Virus record (IMG/VR): IMGVR_UViG_3300007960_000224 | Coordinates: 1 to 22,274 of that record | Strand: one strand, 5' to 3' | Source: a virus | DNA length: 22,274 bases | Part shown: one piece after another, positions 1,033 to 22,274 of the stretch | Numbering within the stretch: the first letter of the stretch is position 1 | Layout: each line of letters starts with the position of its first letter | Notes under the pieces: model-generated | What the model was told of the DNA's origin: nothing | What the model saw: only the letters and a program-made list of their open reading frames with translations | Database searches by the model: none | Made by a program: the position numbers and the translations under genes

Positions 1033-1089
1033 TCACTTCCTTTCAAAGGCGCGATACTGGCGAAGGCGGGCAATCAAATCGTCAGCCAT
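1033..1089 (-). CDS. MicroORF, 18 aa
   Basis: ATG at 1089 overlaps the stop of the DUF7666 gene by one base (TGATG) and is preceded by GGAGG inside that gene's last codons. It encodes MADDLIARLRQYRAFERK and ends 1 base before the next gene's ATG; its last codons contain the AGGAAG ribosome-binding site of that gene. It fits the gap exactly, so it may be a genuine microprotein or a coupling leader that carries ribosomes between two genes. Confidence 0.4.
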   Translation of the reverse strand: MADDLIARLRQYRAFERK

Positions 1090-1994
1090 CACTCAACCTC
1101 CACCGGCTTGCCGTTATTGAGCGTGTAGAACGTGTCGGGCTTGATGCGCTTTTTCCCGACGATGCCCGCCCAGGCGGCGATAATTTCGCCATCGTCGTTG
1201 CGTTCGACCAGAAACAACGCACAACCTTTCGCGCCCTTGGCCATTCCGTCGAGGCCCGCCGACATGGCAACGCTATGCTTGCCGTTGCTGGCGGCGCTCG
1301 ACCAGTCGCCGGTGCTGACGGCGCTCGACCAGTCGCCGGTGCTGGCGGCGCTCGTCCATCTGCCGTTGCTAGCGGCGTTCGACCTGTCGCCGGTGCTGAC
1401 GGCGTTCGACCCGTTGCCGTTGCTGGCGGCGCTCGACCAGTCGCCGGTGCTGGCGGCGCTCGACCAGTTGCCGTTGCTGGCAGCGCTCGTCCATCTGCCG
1501 TTGCTAGCGGCGTTCGACACGTAGCCGTTGCTAGCGGCGTTCGACCTGTAGCCAGTGCTGGCGGCGCTCGACCTTTCGCCGTTGCTGACGGCGCTCGACC
1601 TTTCGCCGTTGCTGGCGGCGCTCGACCCGTAGCCGGTGGCGAGTTGCTTGTCGCCTTCCCTTTTTGCCTTGGCTGAAATCCAATCGACCGCGCGCGCGAT
1701 CAACTCACGCAATTCAAGTCGTGCGTGAATGGTGATTTCCGATGCTGTAATTTTGGAACCGATGCCGTCTCGGTCGATGTCGCCACCGCACACAGCTTCG
1801 TGGTACACGCTCTTGGTCGGCGGGTAAAAACTGAACACGGAAAGCGGGTTGCCATCGATGGCGTGAAAGCCGCTTTCCGTGCAGCGCGCCGGTGGCCCAT
1901 CGTGCTTGTAGGTCTGGCCTTCCTCGTACTGGAAGCCCCGACACGTCATGTCGGTGTTGAAGCCCTTGATTGCCTTGATGGTATTGTCTTGCAT
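1089..1994 (-). CDS. DUF7666-type phage protein with fourteen nonapeptide repeats
   Basis: 301 residues in three parts. Residues 1-110 (KAIKGFNTDMTCRGFQYEEG..., ESGFHA, NPLSVFSFYPP) match the DUF7666 domain of phage and bacterial proteins of unknown function. Residues 122-247 are fourteen back-to-back nine-residue units of consensus xxSSAASNG or xxSSAASTG. Residues 248-301 (KGAKGCALFLVERNDDGEI...IKPDTFYTLNNGKPVEVE) are the C-terminal cap usually seen after such repeats. Small residues at fixed spacing suggest a beta-solenoid-like stack, by inference only. TGGAG lies 6 bases before the ATG. No enzymatic motif is seen. It lies in the small-gene end of the early block, so an accessory role in the infected cell is more likely than a virion role, but this is not shown. 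Confidence 0.85.
   Translation of the reverse strand: MQDNTIKAIKGFNTDMTCRGFQYEEGQTYKHDGPPARCTESGFHAIDGNPLSVFSFYPPTKSVYHEAVCGGDIDRDGIGSKITASEITIHARLELRELIARAVDWISAKAKREGDKQLATGYGSSAASNGERSSAVSNGERSSAASTGYRSNAASNGYVSNAASNGRWTSAASNGNWSSAASTGDWSSAASNGNGSNAVSTGDRSNAASNGRWTSAASTGDWSSAVSTGDWSSAASNGKHSVAMSAGLDGMAKGAKGCALFLVERNDDGEIIAAWAGIVGKKRIKPDTFYTLNNGKPVEVE
1254..1631 (-). repeat. 27-bp tandem repeat array, 14 units, inside CDS
   Basis: Fourteen in-frame 27-bp units with no interruption, encoding residues 122-247 of the DUF7666 protein. On the leftward strand each unit ends with AGCAACGGC (SNG) or AGCACCGGC (STG), apart from the last, which ends SAG. Units differ mainly in the first two codons (DW, RW, ER, NW, YR, KH etc.) and in N versus T at position 8. 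Confidence 0.95.
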
Positions 1995-10728: not shown

Positions 10729-10881
10729 TTACCTTGGCCAGCGCAGGCTGGCGTTGTGGCGGCGCTCCTCTTCCGCCTCCTGACGCTGCTCGTCTTCGCG
10801 TCGCATCTCTTCCATAGCCTCGCGCAGAATGCGCTGGCGGCGGGTTTCGCGGTCGAGGATGTTTTGAATTGATTTATGCAT
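10729..10881 (-). CDS. Highly charged coiled-coil microprotein, 50 aa
   Basis: MHKSIQNILDRETRRQRILR then an E/R-rich run (EEMRREDEQRQEAEEERR) and a RWPR tail. Roughly half of the residues are R, E, D or K, consistent with a single long helix or coiled coil. GGAGGTCACC precedes the ATG and a consensus promoter lies 29 bases upstream. Function unknown; charged early microproteins are often host-takeover factors, but that is analogy only. Confidence 0.68.
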   Translation of the reverse strand: MHKSIQNILDRETRRQRILREAMEEMRREDEQRQEAEEERRHNASLRWPR

Positions 10882-10882
10882 G

Positions 10883-10940
10883 GTGACCTCCGTTGATTAA
10901 CTGAGAAGGATTATAGGGCGTCAGACACTGATGTCAACAC
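10883..10940 (-). repeat. 58-bp direct repeat, copy 1 (promoter plus leader)
   Basis: Identical over all 58 bases to 11177-11234. It holds the whole promoter, the 5' leader and the GGAGGTCAC ribosome-binding site. A shorter, related version precedes the ardC-like gene: 33 identical bases ending at 10718, plus the RBS. Confidence 0.97.
10910..10937 (-). promoter_or_regulatory. Leftward consensus sigma70 promoter, upstream of 50-aa gene
   Basis: Leftward strand: TTGACA (10937-10932), the 16-base conserved spacer, TATAAT (10915-10910). Part of the 58-bp repeat. Confidence 0.88.
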
Positions 10941-10950
10941 CCCCATAAAA

Positions 10951-11175
10951 TTATTTCTCGATGGGGTTGCGGCGGAGCCAGCGGGCTAGGTCGAGCATGA
11001 CGCCAGCCGCAGAGTGCCCGGTTACGGTGGAGTGAGCCTCTAAAAGCAGGAGGCCGGTGGGGAGGACGGCAGCGACAATAGCGTCGGTGTTGACGTCTTC
11101 GACGTAGGCGCGCCATGCGACAACTTCTTTGCCGCCGATTTCTTCACGCTCGATTTTGATGTACTTAGTAAACAT
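10951..11175 (-). CDS. Hypothetical protein, 74 aa, first gene of the leftward block
   Basis: MFTKYIKIEREEIGGKEVVA starts a beta-rich N-terminus; the centre AIVAAVLPTGLLLLEAHSTV is hydrophobic but broken by P, T and G; it ends in LDLARWLRRNPIEK. It reads as a small alpha/beta domain rather than a membrane protein. GGAGGTCACA precedes the ATG and a consensus promoter lies 28 bases upstream. Being first after the divergent control region, it is expected to be expressed early. No family recognised. Confidence 0.72.
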   Translation of the reverse strand: MFTKYIKIEREEIGGKEVVAWRAYVEDVNTDAIVAAVLPTGLLLLEAHSTVTGHSAAGVMLDLARWLRRNPIEK

Positions 11176-11176
11176 T

Positions 11177-11234
11177 GTGACCTCCGTTGATTAACTGAGA
11201 AGGATTATAGGGCGTCAGACACTGATGTCAACAC
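11177..11234 (-). repeat. 58-bp direct repeat, copy 2 (promoter plus leader)
   Basis: Second exact copy of 10883-10940, upstream of the 74-residue gene. The two copies are 294 bases apart (start to start) and bracket that gene. Confidence 0.97.
11204..11231 (-). promoter_or_regulatory. Leftward consensus sigma70 promoter, upstream of 74-aa gene
   Basis: Leftward strand: TTGACA (11231-11226), the conserved 16-base spacer, TATAAT (11209-11204). It is the outermost leftward promoter and begins directly beside a terminator T-tract. Confidence 0.88.
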
Positions 11235-13810: not shown

Positions 13811-14143
13811 ATGGCAAATCGAAATAAGCAGCGTGGTTATGAGCTGGAGAGAGAGACGGTATTATTCTGGCGAGAGCACGGCGCGGAGGTTCAGCGCAAC
13901 GTCGGGTCCGGCGCGTTCAAGAACTACAGCGAAGACCTCGCCGGAGACGTGAAGCTCGGGCCGTATGTGATCGAATGTAAGCGCAAGAAGAGCGGCTACC
14001 GTTTTTTGTATCAGAGCCTCGATCAGGACGAGGTCAACGATATGCTGTGCATACGAGAAGATAGACAGCGTCGGCTTTACGTGCTGGAGGAGGAGACCCT
14101 ACTGGACTTGATGCGCAAAGCTGGGTTATGCTCTGCGCCATGA
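13811..14143 (+). CDS. Holliday-junction-resolvase-like PD-(D/E)XK nuclease, 110 aa
   Basis: Short nuclease with the Hjc/phage-resolvase pattern: NKQRGYELERETVLFWREHG (catalytic-helix glutamate E13 or E15), RNVGSGAF, then D42/D46 in EDLAGDVKLG, and the E55-C-K57 motif in YVIECKRKK. A C-terminal helix LEEETLLDLMRKAG completes the minimal fold. Such enzymes resolve branched phage DNA before packaging. GAGGAG lies 8 bases upstream of the ATG. The gene follows the GCTAC cluster and overlaps the next gene (ATGA), linking it to packaging. It could instead be a nicking enzyme of the same superfamily. Confidence 0.78.
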   Translation: MANRNKQRGYELERETVLFWREHGAEVQRNVGSGAFKNYSEDLAGDVKLGPYVIECKRKKSGYRFLYQSLDQDEVNDMLCIREDRQRRLYVLEEETLLDLMRKAGLCSAP

Positions 14144-14895
14144 GACACTACGTTTACGCACTGATCGACCCGCGTGATCTCCAGCCGTTTTACATCGGCA
14201 AGGGGTCATCGGCTCGTCGCTTTCAGCATTTCAGAGACCTTCCTCGTGACGTCGAAAAGTCCGGCGACAAGGCAAAGCGCATCAAGGAGATTAAGGCCGA
14301 TGGGTTCAAACCCGAGGCTGTTGTACTCTCGTGGCACGATACTGATGATCAGGCATACGCCGAAGAACAGCGCCGCATCGCGAGCATCGGCTTGGACAAG
14401 CTCACAAATCAAAACGGCGGGGGAGCTGGTGATCGCACAAAGCCCTCGACCTCACCGAAGCGTCTTACTCCGAAGCAGGAAAAGTTCTGCCAATGCATCG
14501 TCGAAGGAATGAACCAGAGCGACGCATATCGCGCAGCGTATGACGCTGAGAACATGAAGCCCAACACGATCCACAACCGTGCTAAAGACTTGATGGCTGA
14601 CGGGCTGATTGCGGCTAGGATCGAGGAACTGCGGGAGCCGATCATCGAGGGGCTGGAGAAAACGGTAGCGAGCCAGATCAAAAGGCTCGACGATCTGATC
14701 CAGCAAGCCATCGACACCGATCAAGTATCGGCAGCGATGAAAGGCATCGAGCTTCAATCGAAGCTCCTCGATCAATTCCCTGCGACGAAGAACATCAACG
14801 AGAACCACGACATGACTGCTCTCGACAAGCGCATTCAAGAGGCGCGTGAGCGGCTGACGGAACAACGCCAACACTTGAAGGTCGTCAATGGCTGA
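14140..14895 (+). CDS. GIY-YIG nuclease fused to terminase small subunit
   Basis: 251 residues with two recognisable domains. Residues 3-97 are a GIY-YIG nuclease of the LEM-3-like type: YVYALIDPRD..PFYIGKG, then R26/H30, catalytic Glu in AYAEEQRRIASIG (E75 or E76) and KLTNQNGGG. Residues 108-165 are a terminase small-subunit DNA-binding domain: LTPKQEKFCQCIVEGMNQSD, AYRAAYDAENMKPNTIHNRA, GLIAARIEEL, followed by helices for oligomerisation. TerS normally recognises the packaging site and has no nuclease domain. Immediately upstream of TerL, so the TerS role is secure. The start at 14140 overlaps the resolvase stop (ATGA); the in-frame ATG at 14128 is an alternative and neither has a strong RBS. 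Confidence 0.88.
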   Translation: MRHYVYALIDPRDLQPFYIGKGSSARRFQHFRDLPRDVEKSGDKAKRIKEIKADGFKPEAVVLSWHDTDDQAYAEEQRRIASIGLDKLTNQNGGGAGDRTKPSTSPKRLTPKQEKFCQCIVEGMNQSDAYRAAYDAENMKPNTIHNRAKDLMADGLIAARIEELREPIIEGLEKTVASQIKRLDDLIQQAIDTDQVSAAMKGIELQSKLLDQFPATKNINENHDMTALDKRIQEARERLTEQRQHLKVVNG

Positions 14896-15067
14896 GCATC
14901 AATGGAAAGAACCTCCAGCAGGGCAGAGCCGCGTGCCAGTGTGCCGCGTGTGCGGAGCACGTAAGCTGCCAGACATCGCCAACCCTGATCACCCTGACCA
15001 CACCTGCGTCGCAAAGCCGCAGGATCATTCGAGCTACCATGAAAGCGAATACGACCCGCTCCCGTGA
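14888..15067 (+). CDS. Zinc-knuckle microprotein between terminase subunits, 59 aa
   Basis: Starts MAEHQWKEPPAGQSRVPVCR; C19 and C22 (CRVC) with H35, H38 and C40 (HPDHTC) form a plausible zinc-binding set. It overlaps the TerS end by 8 bases and the TerL start by 29 bases in another frame, so it bridges the two genes. Cysteine pairs in small phage proteins at this position may assist packaging, but no family is recognised. Both overlaps and the metal motif argue for a real gene. Confidence 0.65.
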   Translation: MAEHQWKEPPAGQSRVPVCRVCGARKLPDIANPDHPDHTCVAKPQDHSSYHESEYDPLP

Positions 15068-18270: not shown

Positions 18271-18552
18271 ATGGAACTCGGATCGAAGCCCCTCAAAGGT
18301 ACGCTCATCGAAGGCGCTGATGAGAGCAAGAACTACCCTCGCATCTATCTGATGGACGGCGACACAAGCGTCATCGGCGACCACGCCGTTGGCGATGAGG
18401 TGATGGGCACGATCAAGGTCCGCATTTCCGAGGTGGGCAAGGCAGCCGACGGCAGCCGCAGCGCATCGCTCGAAGTCATCGAGATGCAGCTTGCCGAAAA
18501 GGACAAGCCGACGGCAGCCGACAAGATGTACCCCAGTGTGGCAGGTGACTAA
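18271..18552 (+). CDS. Hypothetical small head-region protein, 93 aa
   Basis: MELGSKPLKGTLIEGADESK, then PRIYLMDGDTSVIGD and MGTIKVRISEVGKAADGSRS, with a LEVIEMQLAEKDKPTAAD tail. It looks like a compact beta-barrel (OB/SH3-like alternation) in the portal neighbourhood. AGGACAG precedes the ATG; its TAA overlaps the portal ATG by one base. No family recognised; accessory head or neck protein by position. Confidence 0.7.
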   Translation: MELGSKPLKGTLIEGADESKNYPRIYLMDGDTSVIGDHAVGDEVMGTIKVRISEVGKAADGSRSASLEVIEMQLAEKDKPTAADKMYPSVAGD

Positions 18553-20288
18553 TGAGCATCGTCGCCACTCCTGAGAACCTGCAAAGCGTCAGCCTCTCCA
18601 CCAAGAAGGGGCCGATCATCAAGCGGTATAAGCGGCTAGAAGATGATCGCAGCTCGTGGCGTTCTCATTGGATGGAGCTGACCGACTACCTCGCTCCGCG
18701 CCGTGGCCGTTACCTTATCGAGGACGTATCGAACACACGTGGCCGGAAGCGCAATAACAAGATCATCGACAGCACCGGGACGCAGGCTCTGCGCACAATG
18801 GCGGCGGGCATGATGTCCGGCATGACCAGCCCGAGCCGACCGTGGCACCGCCGCAAAGTCGCAGACGACGACCTGATGGACAACCAAGCCGTCAAGGAAT
18901 GGCTGAGCCAAGTCGAGATGATCGAGCGCGGCATCCTCAACGCTTCCAACTTCTACACGGCGATGGCCAACGTCTACACCGAGCTAGGCAGCTTCGGCAC
19001 CGCCCCGCTCTACCGGCAGCCATCGTTCGAGATGCTCCGCTTCCGTCCCTTCACTGCTGGTGAGTACGTCATTGCTGAGAATGATCTCGGCATCGTCGAT
19101 ACCCTTGGCCGCTACTTCACGATGAGCGTGTGGCAGATCGTCTCCAAGTTTGTGTCTCAGCCTGATGGCTCTATGGACTGGCGCGGCGTCAGCCGCACGA
19201 CCAAGTCACTTTGGGACAAGGGCAACTACGACACGCTGATCCCAATCATCCACATGATCGAGCCGCGTATGCTGGCCGAGCGCGACATCACCAAGCGCGA
19301 CCAGATGAATATGCCGTTCCGTTCCTGCTACTTCGAGTATGGCGGAGAGGGCAACGACCTTCTGATGGAAGGCGGCTATCGCAAGTTCCCTGCCTACGTC
19401 CCTCGCTGGGACGTGCTGTACGGCGACGTGTATGGGCGCAGCCCCGGCATGGATACGCTTGGCGACATCAAGCAGCTACAGCACCAACAGAAACGCAAGG
19501 CGCAGGCCATCGACAAGATGGTCAACCCGCCGATGGTCGCCAGCGTTGCGCTGCGGGGCAAGCCGACCTCGACGCTGCCGGGTGCAAACACATACGTCGA
19601 TCCGACGCAGGGCCAGACGGCTTTCCAGCCCGCCTACATCGTGCAGCCCCGCATCAACGAAATGATGATGGACATCCAAGAGGTGCAGCAGCGCATCCAA
19701 CGCGGCTTCTATGCAGACCTCTTCGCGATGATGATCAACTCCGATCGTCGTCAGATGACGGCGACTGAGGTGGCCGAGCGCCATGAAGAAAAACTCGTGC
19801 TGCTTGGGCCTGTGCTACAACGGCTCAACGTCGAACTGCTCGACCCGCTCCTCGACGACGTGTTCGAGTACGCGCTGGAGGGCGGTCTCCTCCCGCCACC
19901 TCCGCCTGAGCTGGAAGGTATGGAGCTGGACGTTGAATATGTCTCGTTGTTGGCGCAGGCCCAGCAGGCTGTCGGCGCTTCCGCCATCGAACGCGGAGCG
20001 GGCTTCGTCGGCAATATGTCTGCAATCTTCCCAGAGGTGATGGATGTCGTCGATGCCGACGACATGATCCGCAACTACTTTGACATCGTCGGCGTTCCCG
20101 CGACCTCGACCAAGGACAAGGAGACGGTGGCGCAGGCGCGGCAAGCTCGTGATGAGGCGCAGCAGGCTCAGCAGGGTATGGAGATGGGCGGCCAACTGGC
20201 TCAGAGCGCTAAGGTCTTGAGCGAGGCCGACACGCAGAACCCCAACGCCTTGACTGATCTTCTCGGCACGGGGGCGACGGTACAGTGA
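18552..20288 (+). CDS. Portal, head-to-tail connecting protein (T7/BPP-1-like)
   Basis: 578-residue podovirus-type connector forming the dodecameric ring at the capsid vertex through which TerL moves DNA. Family signs: RYKRLEDDRSSWRSHWMELT at residues 25-44, DYLAPRRGRYL, GTQALRTMAAGMMSGMTSPS (a highly typical segment), WLSQVEMIERGI, NFYTAMANVYTELGSFGTAP, and the C-terminal half with ERHEEKLVLLGPVLQRLNVE. A glutamine-rich coiled-coil tail (QARQARDEAQQAQQG) ends the protein. Length fits the family. Stop overlaps the next start (GTGA). Confidence 0.95.
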   Translation: MSIVATPENLQSVSLSTKKGPIIKRYKRLEDDRSSWRSHWMELTDYLAPRRGRYLIEDVSNTRGRKRNNKIIDSTGTQALRTMAAGMMSGMTSPSRPWHRRKVADDDLMDNQAVKEWLSQVEMIERGILNASNFYTAMANVYTELGSFGTAPLYRQPSFEMLRFRPFTAGEYVIAENDLGIVDTLGRYFTMSVWQIVSKFVSQPDGSMDWRGVSRTTKSLWDKGNYDTLIPIIHMIEPRMLAERDITKRDQMNMPFRSCYFEYGGEGNDLLMEGGYRKFPAYVPRWDVLYGDVYGRSPGMDTLGDIKQLQHQQKRKAQAIDKMVNPPMVASVALRGKPTSTLPGANTYVDPTQGQTAFQPAYIVQPRINEMMMDIQEVQQRIQRGFYADLFAMMINSDRRQMTATEVAERHEEKLVLLGPVLQRLNVELLDPLLDDVFEYALEGGLLPPPPPELEGMELDVEYVSLLAQAQQAVGASAIERGAGFVGNMSAIFPEVMDVVDADDMIRNYFDIVGVPATSTKDKETVAQARQARDEAQQAQQGMEMGGQLAQSAKVLSEADTQNPNALTDLLGTGATVQ

Positions 20289-21266: not shown

Positions 21267-22274
21267 ATGGCTGCGCTTGGCACTGAAAACCCGACCCTCG
21301 CTGATTTGGCGAAGGTCACCGACCCCGACGGCTCCATTGCCGACGTGGTTGAAATCCTAAACCAGACGAACGAAATCCTCGAAGACATGACGTGGATGGA
21401 AGGCAACCTCACGACCGGTCACCGGACCTCGATCCGCACCGGCCTGCCGTCGCCGACCTTCCGCAAAATGTACGGTTTTGTGCAGCCGACGAAGTCGCGT
21501 TCGACACAAGTCACTGACAACACCGCGATGATGGAAGACTACTCGCAGGTCGATAAGGCGCTGGTCGATATGGCTGGCAACCCGGCTGCGTTCCGTCTGC
21601 AAGAGGATCGTCCTCACATCGAGGGCATGAACCAAACCTTGGCCACCAAACTCTTCTACGGCGACGAAGCGTCGGCACCGGAAGAGTTCACGGGTCTCAC
21701 GCCGCGTTACAACGACACGTCGGCTGAGAACGGCGACAACATGATCAACGGCGGTGCGGCAAACGGTCAGACCGACTGCGCATCCATCTGGTTGATCTGC
21801 TGGTCTCCGAATACCTGCCACGGCATCATCCCGAAAGGTTCCAAAGCTGGTCTCCAGCAGCGTGACCTCGGCGAAGTTACCGTGCAGGATACCGTCGGTG
21901 GTTCGACCGGTCTGTATCAGGCATACCGCACCCACTACCGTTGGGATGTTGGTCTGACTGTTCGCGACTGGCGTTACATCGTTCGCATCCACTCTATCGA
22001 CCGCAGCCTGTTGACGGCTGACGTCTCGACGGGTGCCGATCTGAACGATCTGATGCACCAAGCGTTGACGGAAATCCCCAACGCCTCGATGGGCCGTTGC
22101 GCGTGGTACATGGACAAGCAGGTTCTAGCCTTCTTGCGCCGTCAGACCTCCAACGCGGTGGCGAACTCGACGCTGACGACCGATATGGTCGGCGGCACGC
22201 TGCAGACGTCGTGGGGGGGTTACCCGATCCGCCGTGTGGACGCCCTCCGCACTAACGAAACCTCGCTGAACTAA
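21267..22274 (+). CDS. Major capsid protein (Bbp17/podovirus HK97-fold type)
   Basis: 335 residues ending at a TAA on the last base of the window, so the gene is complete. Features of the family: LADLAKVTDPDGSIADVVEI, ILNQTNEILEDMTWMEGN, TSIRTGLPSPTFRKMYGFVQ, KSRSTQVTDNTAMMEDYSQV, ATKLFYGDEASAPEEFTGLT, ANGQTDCASIWLICWSPNTC, TVRDWRYIVRIHSID, GRCAWYMDKQVLAFL and YPIRRVDALRTNET. This matches BPP-1-like capsid proteins of HK97 fold. It forms the icosahedral shell with the scaffold encoded upstream. AAAGGAG precedes the ATG. Codon usage is biased toward C-ending codons, as expected for a highly expressed gene. Confidence 0.95.
   Translation: MAALGTENPTLADLAKVTDPDGSIADVVEILNQTNEILEDMTWMEGNLTTGHRTSIRTGLPSPTFRKMYGFVQPTKSRSTQVTDNTAMMEDYSQVDKALVDMAGNPAAFRLQEDRPHIEGMNQTLATKLFYGDEASAPEEFTGLTPRYNDTSAENGDNMINGGAANGQTDCASIWLICWSPNTCHGIIPKGSKAGLQQRDLGEVTVQDTVGGSTGLYQAYRTHYRWDVGLTVRDWRYIVRIHSIDRSLLTADVSTGADLNDLMHQALTEIPNASMGRCAWYMDKQVLAFLRRQTSNAVANSTLTTDMVGGTLQTSWGGYPIRRVDALRTNETSLN

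What the first reader, a model, noticed from the sequence alone, without database searches (positions are those of the whole stretch)
14140..14895. GIY-YIG nuclease fused to a terminase small subunit
One continuous frame gives a complete LEM-3-like GIY-YIG domain (YVYALI..FYIGKG, catalytic Glu, TNQNGGG) followed by a TerS DNA-binding domain. TerS proteins normally only recognise DNA; cutting is done by TerL. A built-in nuclease could nick or cut at the packaging site, act as a homing element captured by a terminase, or be a remnant. Both domains retain their signature residues, so it does not look decayed.
Basis: partly seen in the sequence, partly recalled or inferred. Interest (0 to 1): 0.68.

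Follow-up and report, generated by a model that had tools for sequence, protein, structure and literature searches.

The report
Phage terminase with built-in DNA cutter
In one group of environmental phages, the protein that picks out phage DNA for packaging (small terminase) is permanently fused to an apparently intact GIY-YIG DNA-cutting enzyme, probably captured from a homing endonuclease, so the idea that such selfish nucleases are domesticated into packaging machines can be tested.

Summary
Window 14140-14895 is one open frame (251 aa): a LEM-3-like GIY-YIG nuclease followed by a small terminase (TerS). It is not an assembly chimera. An identical copy sits in an independent 44-kb contig, and 20 further distinct fusions were found, all with a large-terminase gene downstream wherever the contig extends that far. 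The fused GIY-YIG domains form one clade (support 100/99). Their catalytic residues are invariant or nearly so, and purifying selection on the nuclease part is at least as strong as on the TerS part. In the window and six relatives the linker has no start codon, so every TerS subunit should carry a nuclease. Related GIY-YIG genes repeatedly sit beside terminase genes, and in three contigs one has been inserted inside terS, leaving a stub upstream. This points to capture of a homing-type endonuclease. No record among 50,697 annotated phages has the fusion. My best explanation is a captured endonuclease, now a selected part of the packaging module, that nicks or cuts where TerS binds, alongside an intact TerL nuclease (compare HK97 gp74). 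The evolutionary part is well supported; the cutting role is inferred. Continued homing at terS is the main rival. Interest about 0.6.

The parts
14140..14439 (+). LEM-3-like GIY-YIG nuclease domain (residues 1-100; putative catalytic Y6, Y18, R26/H30, K44, E76, N90)
   Evidence: PF22945; fold match to I-TevI catalytic domain and PD-T4-3; residues conserved across fusions, compared with ANKLE1 active site (PMC10287932)
14440..14463 (+). low-confidence linker between domains, without an in-frame ATG/GTG/TTG
   Evidence: pLDDT below 50 at residues 98-105; no internal start codon
14464..14643 (+). TerS helix-turn-helix DNA-binding region (residues 109-168, LTPKQEKF...)
   Evidence: PF03592 and phrog_51; helices at 111-121, 126-133, 141-152
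14644..14892 (+). TerS helical oligomerisation region and C-terminal tail; tail retained in relatives that lost the GIY-YIG and HTH
   Evidence: AF2 helices 155-192, 196-212, 225-250; L088/L089
13811..14143 (+). upstream Hjc/RusA-like PDDEXK resolvase gene, overlapping the fusion start (ATGA)
   Evidence: PF01870 E 2.8e-5, phrog_244 E 3.6e-12; similar-sized gene upstream in relatives
14888..15067 (+). small CxxC...H..C (zinc-ribbon-like) gene between fusion and TerL, conserved in relatives
   Evidence: ORF; homologous frames in L085, L086, L088, L089, L092
15039..16529 (+). large terminase (TerL), ATPase and RNase H-like nuclease motifs intact
   Evidence: phrog_2; epsilon15/phiV10-like relatives at 39-48% identity; motifs
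18552..20288 (+). portal (head-to-tail connector)
   Evidence: PF12236 E 1.5e-161
21267..22274 (+). major capsid protein GP7 type, runs off the window
   Evidence: PF20911 E 2.6e-126

Best explanation
A homing-type GIY-YIG endonuclease gene that invaded the 5' end of terS became fused in frame to TerS and is now kept by selection as a nuclease carried by the terminase. Shown here: intact fused frame, intact catalytic residues, purifying selection, single origin of the fused clade, obligate fusion in the window phage, invasion of terS by related nucleases. Inferred: TerS forms its usual ring on the packaging site, so each ring presents about 8-11 GIY-YIG domains. The helix-turn-helix supplies the address, and the GIY-YIG nicks or cuts the concatemer nearby at packaging initiation. 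This works with, not instead of, the intact TerL nuclease, in the manner of HK97's HNH protein gp74.
For: 21 distinct fused proteins, all with a TerL gene next where the contig allows. Fused GIY domains form one clade, 100/99. Y6, Y18, K44, E76 and N90 conserved in all, H30 in 18/20, matching ANKLE1 residues whose mutation kills or impairs cleavage (PMC10287932). Close-pair dN/dS in the GIY part 0.02-0.20, often below the TerS parts. No linker start codon in the window and six relatives, so TerS there is made only as a fusion. TerL nuclease motifs intact. GIY-YIG inserted inside terS in L228, L230 and L257; relatives beside TerS/TerL in L225, L247, ctHz2215 and Proteus phage ZX7. The domestication idea is stated as open in PMC10448857, and gp74 stimulates cos cleavage (PMC11331095).
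Against: No cleavage, packaging site or genome end was demonstrated. L088/L089 have 69%-identical TerL but lack the GIY-YIG and HTH, and epsilon15-type relatives manage without it, so it is not required for this TerL class. The GIY domain is exchanged as a cassette between phages with about 87-90% identical flanks, which also fits ongoing homing. In L215 and L224 the fusion sits with an unrelated TerL, so any co-adaptation with TerL is loose.
Confidence: 0.45

Rival explanations
1. The fusion is still an active homing or allele-conversion element: TerS's HTH and the GIY-YIG cut terS of coinfecting phages lacking this allele, and repair copies the fused gene in. Packaging uses only the TerS half.
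For: Standalone relatives have terminase and ribonucleotide-reductase genes as their commonest recognisable neighbours, the sites reported for T5orf172 HEGs (PMC10448857). Three insertions inside terS. Cassette exchange of exactly the GIY segment between near-identical phages (L085 vs L209).
Against: The fused clade is monophyletic, long-lived and under strong constraint. The observed swap exchanges one fused allele for another; a GIY-plus/GIY-minus pair in a near-identical background was not seen.
Confidence: 0.3
2. The LEM-3-like domain clears branched DNA (Y and four-way junctions) from replicating concatemers as TerS/TerL load, like its eukaryotic namesake ANKLE1.
For: Pfam family is LEM-3-like; human ANKLE1 prefers branched DNA (PMC10287932).
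Against: A Hjc/RusA-like resolvase gene already overlaps the fusion gene. The nearer solved relative is PD-T4-3, annotated as 5hmC-specific, not a resolvase.
Confidence: 0.1
3. A weapon: the nuclease cuts DNA of satellites or rival phages that carry a mimic or variant of the packaging site, as the chimeric nuclease Odn does to PLE origins.
For: HEG nucleases have been fused to satellite-derived DNA-binding domains before (PMC8263062; PMC10448857). The HTH region is swapped independently of the nuclease (L084 vs L085).
Against: Here the fused protein is the only TerS found next to terL, so its own genome must carry the bound site; Odn-type weapons avoid that. No satellite was identified.
Confidence: 0.08
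4. A dead remnant: a GIY-YIG fold used only as extra DNA binding or structure.
For: L084/L085 lack the conserved H30.
Against: Other catalytic residues invariant in 20-21 proteins; nonsynonymous changes strongly purged.
Confidence: 0.05

Closest known systems
HK97 gp74 and other HNH packaging endonucleases next to terminase genes
   Same: HEG-like nuclease tied to the terminase module and acting alongside TerL (from PMC11331095 and PMC10448857)
   Different: HNH fold, separate protein; here GIY-YIG and covalently part of TerS
Phage GIY-YIG homing endonucleases (I-TevI, Seg, T5orf172 types)
   Same: GIY-YIG nuclease joined to a helix-turn-helix DNA-binding part; family members sit by terminase and RNR genes
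   Different: The DNA-binding part here is the phage's own TerS; no intron, and homing not shown
Odn of Vibrio phage ICP1 (chimeric GIY-YIG nuclease)
   Same: HEG nuclease domain fused to a borrowed sequence-specific DNA-binding domain
   Different: Odn targets a satellite origin; here the partner is an essential packaging subunit
PD-T4-3 (bacterial GIY-YIG anti-phage nuclease)
   Same: Closest solved and PADLOC relative of the nuclease domain
   Different: Host defence protein, no TerS
Ordinary TerS of PF03592/phrog_51 (e.g. Pam5, ES18)
   Same: HTH and helical region, gene just before terL
   Different: No nuclease domain

Membership tests
GIY-YIG nuclease (LEM-3-like, PF22945) | profile match above curated cut-off | tested here: met
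   48.3 bits vs 27 for residues 1-100
GIY-YIG nuclease (LEM-3-like, PF22945) | catalytic Tyr, Tyr, Lys, Glu, Asn | tested here: met
   Y6, Y18, K44, E76, N90 invariant in fusions; correspondence to ANKLE1 by motif and position
GIY-YIG nuclease (LEM-3-like, PF22945) | nuclease activity | not testable with these tools
   needs protein
Small terminase (TerS, PF03592/phrog_51) | profile match | tested here: met
   28 bits vs 26.1 for residues 101-251; the full-length protein alone is just below, 25.4; phrog_51 E 8e-17; Pam5 TerS E 2e-13
Small terminase (TerS, PF03592/phrog_51) | gene directly upstream of terL | tested here: met
   window (one small gene between) and relatives
Small terminase (TerS, PF03592/phrog_51) | ring oligomer binding pac/cos | not testable with these tools
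   single-chain model only
Homing endonuclease gene | insertion into a conserved gene or neighbourhood | tested here: met
   met for relatives L228, L230, L257; for the fusion itself only adjacency and fusion to terS
Homing endonuclease gene | empty site in a near-identical background | tested here: inconclusive
   L088/L089 lack GIY and HTH but TerL is only 69% identical
Homing endonuclease gene | biased allele transfer | not testable with these tools
   needs coinfection
HK97 gp74-type packaging nuclease | HNH motif | tested here: not met
   Pfam finds GIY-YIG and no HNH family; functional analogy only
HK97 gp74-type packaging nuclease | stimulates terminase cleavage | not testable with these tools
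   needs assay

The most novel reading that the evidence does not exclude
The TerS ring itself is a nuclease: it recognises pac and makes the packaging-initiation cut or nick with its own GIY-YIG domains, giving a terminase with two different nucleases, one for initiation (TerS) and one for headful termination (TerL).
Probability: 0.3. Interest if true: 0.75.

Novelty: new variant of a known kind. Interest (0 to 1): 0.6.

Why it matters
In textbook terminases TerS finds the DNA and TerL cuts it. Whether nucleases beside terminase genes are selfish homing genes or packaging parts is an explicitly open question (PMC10448857 discussion). A lineage in which the nuclease is covalently part of an essential subunit, under strong selection, with unfused and inserted relatives available for comparison, makes that question directly testable with one point mutation.

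Tried and rejected
Assembly chimera or frameshift: rejected (independent identical contig, 20 other fusions). Fusion in isolated phages: none among 50,697 records, best coverage under 80%; Bordetella phage hits 65-210 are an ordinary TerS with no GIY-YIG upstream; ctHz2215 is a GIY-YIG gene before terL, not a TerS fusion. Fusion in bacterial genomes: none in the 80 best loci. GIY-YIG compensating for a dead TerL nuclease: rejected, motifs intact. Independently translated TerS from the linker: no conserved internal start. NCBIfam: no hit. A GIY-only viral scan with single-sequence patterns gave only 8 loci. Pac versus cos could not be decided: the 44-kb relative has an exact 127-base end overlap, which is likely k-mer sized and shows only a circular assembly. 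Kala et al. 2014 is not held in the library, so HK97 gp74 facts come from citing papers. Two PHROG calls failed on bad coordinates and one region request was too long.

Full report
OBSERVATION. The frame 14140-14895 is open and encodes 251 aa. Scanned apart, residues 1-100 match LEM-3_GIY-YIG (PF22945, 48.3 bits, cut-off 27) and residues 101-251 match Terminase_2 (PF03592, 28 bits, cut-off 26.1); phrog_51 and phrog_1595 TerS match the second half. A profile of the family finds PD-T4-3 (E 1e-21) with the first half and the Pam5 small terminase (E 2e-13) with the second. The AlphaFold2 model (mean pLDDT 75.7, pTM 0.37, so relative domain placement is not trustworthy) has a GIY-YIG fold, a low-confidence linker at 98-105 and a helical second half. 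Foldseek finds PD-T4-3, the I-TevI catalytic domain (TM 0.69 by target) and, weakly, PaP3 TerS. The gene starts with an ATGA overlap on an Hjc/RusA-like resolvase gene and is followed by a small CxxC gene, TerL, a PF12236 portal and a GP7-type capsid gene. TerL is of the epsilon15/phiV10 kind, 39-48% identical to isolates.

NOT AN ARTEFACT. An independent 44,360-base contig carries the identical protein and nearly identical DNA over the whole window. Searches with the fusion and with an alignment of fusions found 27 loci holding 21 distinct fused proteins (L280 is a near-copy of L209), 30-99% identical to each other. All have a TerL gene next where the contig extends. L215 and L224 pair the fusion with a quite different TerL (phrog_979 type, 23% identity for L215), so the nuclease-TerS bond is kept across TerL exchange. 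No annotated phage record has a match covering 80% of the protein, and none of the 80 best bacterial loci is a fusion. The collections scanned are limited and the scans use short patterns, so absence is not proof.

CONDITION OF THE NUCLEASE. Y6, Y18, G20-K21-G22, R26, K44, E76 and N90 are invariant and H30 is kept in 18/20. In human ANKLE1 the active site is Y453, Y486, H498, K519, E551 and N565, all needed for full activity (PMC10287932); the correspondence is by motif and position. Close pairs show strong purifying selection on the GIY part: for example L086/L213 has 15 synonymous to 1 nonsynonymous change in GIY, 15:4 in the HTH and 3:7 in the tail; L084/L085 has 18:2 in GIY. TerL keeps its ATPase and nuclease motifs, so the GIY-YIG does not stand in for a lost nuclease. 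In the window, L086, L087, L091, L210, L213 and L221 the linker holds no ATG, GTG or TTG; elsewhere such codons are not at a conserved place. TerS is thus made only as a fusion in those phages, and if it forms the usual ring every subunit brings a nuclease (inference).

ORIGIN. In a tree of 148 GIY-YIG domains the fused ones form one group (100/99); the tree rests on 103 columns and its bootstrap had not fully settled. terS-associated but unfused relatives lie in other groups: L225 (gene overlapping terS start), L247 (after terS), ctHz2215 (before terL); and the isolated Proteus phage ZX7 has a GIY-YIG gene between terS and terL (not in the tree). In L228, L230 and L257 the GIY-YIG sits inside terS: the upstream stub encodes MTKPLTPKQESF (L228) or LTxKQ..F..EY..DLNATQAAIRxGY (L230 and L257, same place), then the nuclease, then a complete small-terminase gene (L257's second gene matches phrog_309). 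Among 129 neighbour ORFs of unfused relatives, the commonest recognised families are ribonucleotide reductase small chain (9) and large terminases (Terminase_3 6, Terminase_6N 5), with UvdE (6) and TerS (4) next. This resembles T5orf172 homing endonucleases, found near terminases (35%) and ribonucleotide reductases (33%) (PMC10448857). I conclude that a homing-type family repeatedly invades terminase genes and that one invasion became a stable fusion.

MODULARITY. L085 and L209 are about 87-90% identical on both sides but unalignable over the GIY segment; L084 and L085 share GIY and tail but differ in the HTH. L088/L089 keep the TerS tail but have replaced GIY plus HTH by a small phrog_11043-like domain. 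Nuclease, DNA-binding part and tail are exchanged as separate modules. This fits homing-driven exchange and also fits selection for new DNA specificity.

MECHANISM. Most likely the nuclease acts where TerS binds, helping start packaging, as HK97 gp74 stimulates cos cleavage (PMC11331095). The nearly equal rival is that it still converts terS alleles. PMC10448857 points out that the two roles are not exclusive and suggests domestication of such nucleases as end-processing machinery; this fusion is a physical case of that idea. Branch clearing is less likely because a resolvase gene is already next door. An Odn-like weapon (PMC8263062) is less likely because the only TerS beside terL is the fused one.

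VERDICT. Observation confirmed; interpretation partly supported; new variant of a known kind; interest 0.6.

Noticed in passing
window 14888-15067: Small CxxC...H..C (zinc-ribbon-like) protein between the fusion and TerL, conserved in L085, L086, L088, L089 and L092; no family match.
   Followed up: partly
L228:5947-6916, L230:5785-6940, L257:5875-6839: GIY-YIG genes inserted inside terS, with an in-frame stub of terS upstream and a complete small-terminase gene downstream; L230 and L257 share the insertion point.
   Followed up: yes
L088:1243-1533 and L089: TerS whose GIY-YIG and HTH are replaced by a GRKKGTPNK-type domain (phrog_11043) while the C-terminal tail stays, beside a 69%-identical TerL.
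   Followed up: partly
L084:4439-5233 versus L085:3886-4635: Near-identical phages with swapped TerS HTH regions: possible change of packaging-site specificity.
   Followed up: partly
L215:6713-8284: Fusion and window-like portal combined with an unrelated TerL (phrog_979 type): TerL exchange within an otherwise similar packaging module.
   Followed up: partly
window 1089-1994 (-): ORF with many degenerate repeats of a SNGxxSSAA(S/T) motif; the DNA repeats also align to each other.
   Followed up: no
window 10879-10940 and 11173-11234: Near-identical 62-base repeat pair near the non-coding stretch between divergent gene blocks; possible replication or promoter element.
   Followed up: no
window 14140-14439: The nuclease domain is closer in sequence to the bacterial anti-phage nuclease PD-T4-3 than to any other solved structure.
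   Followed up: no
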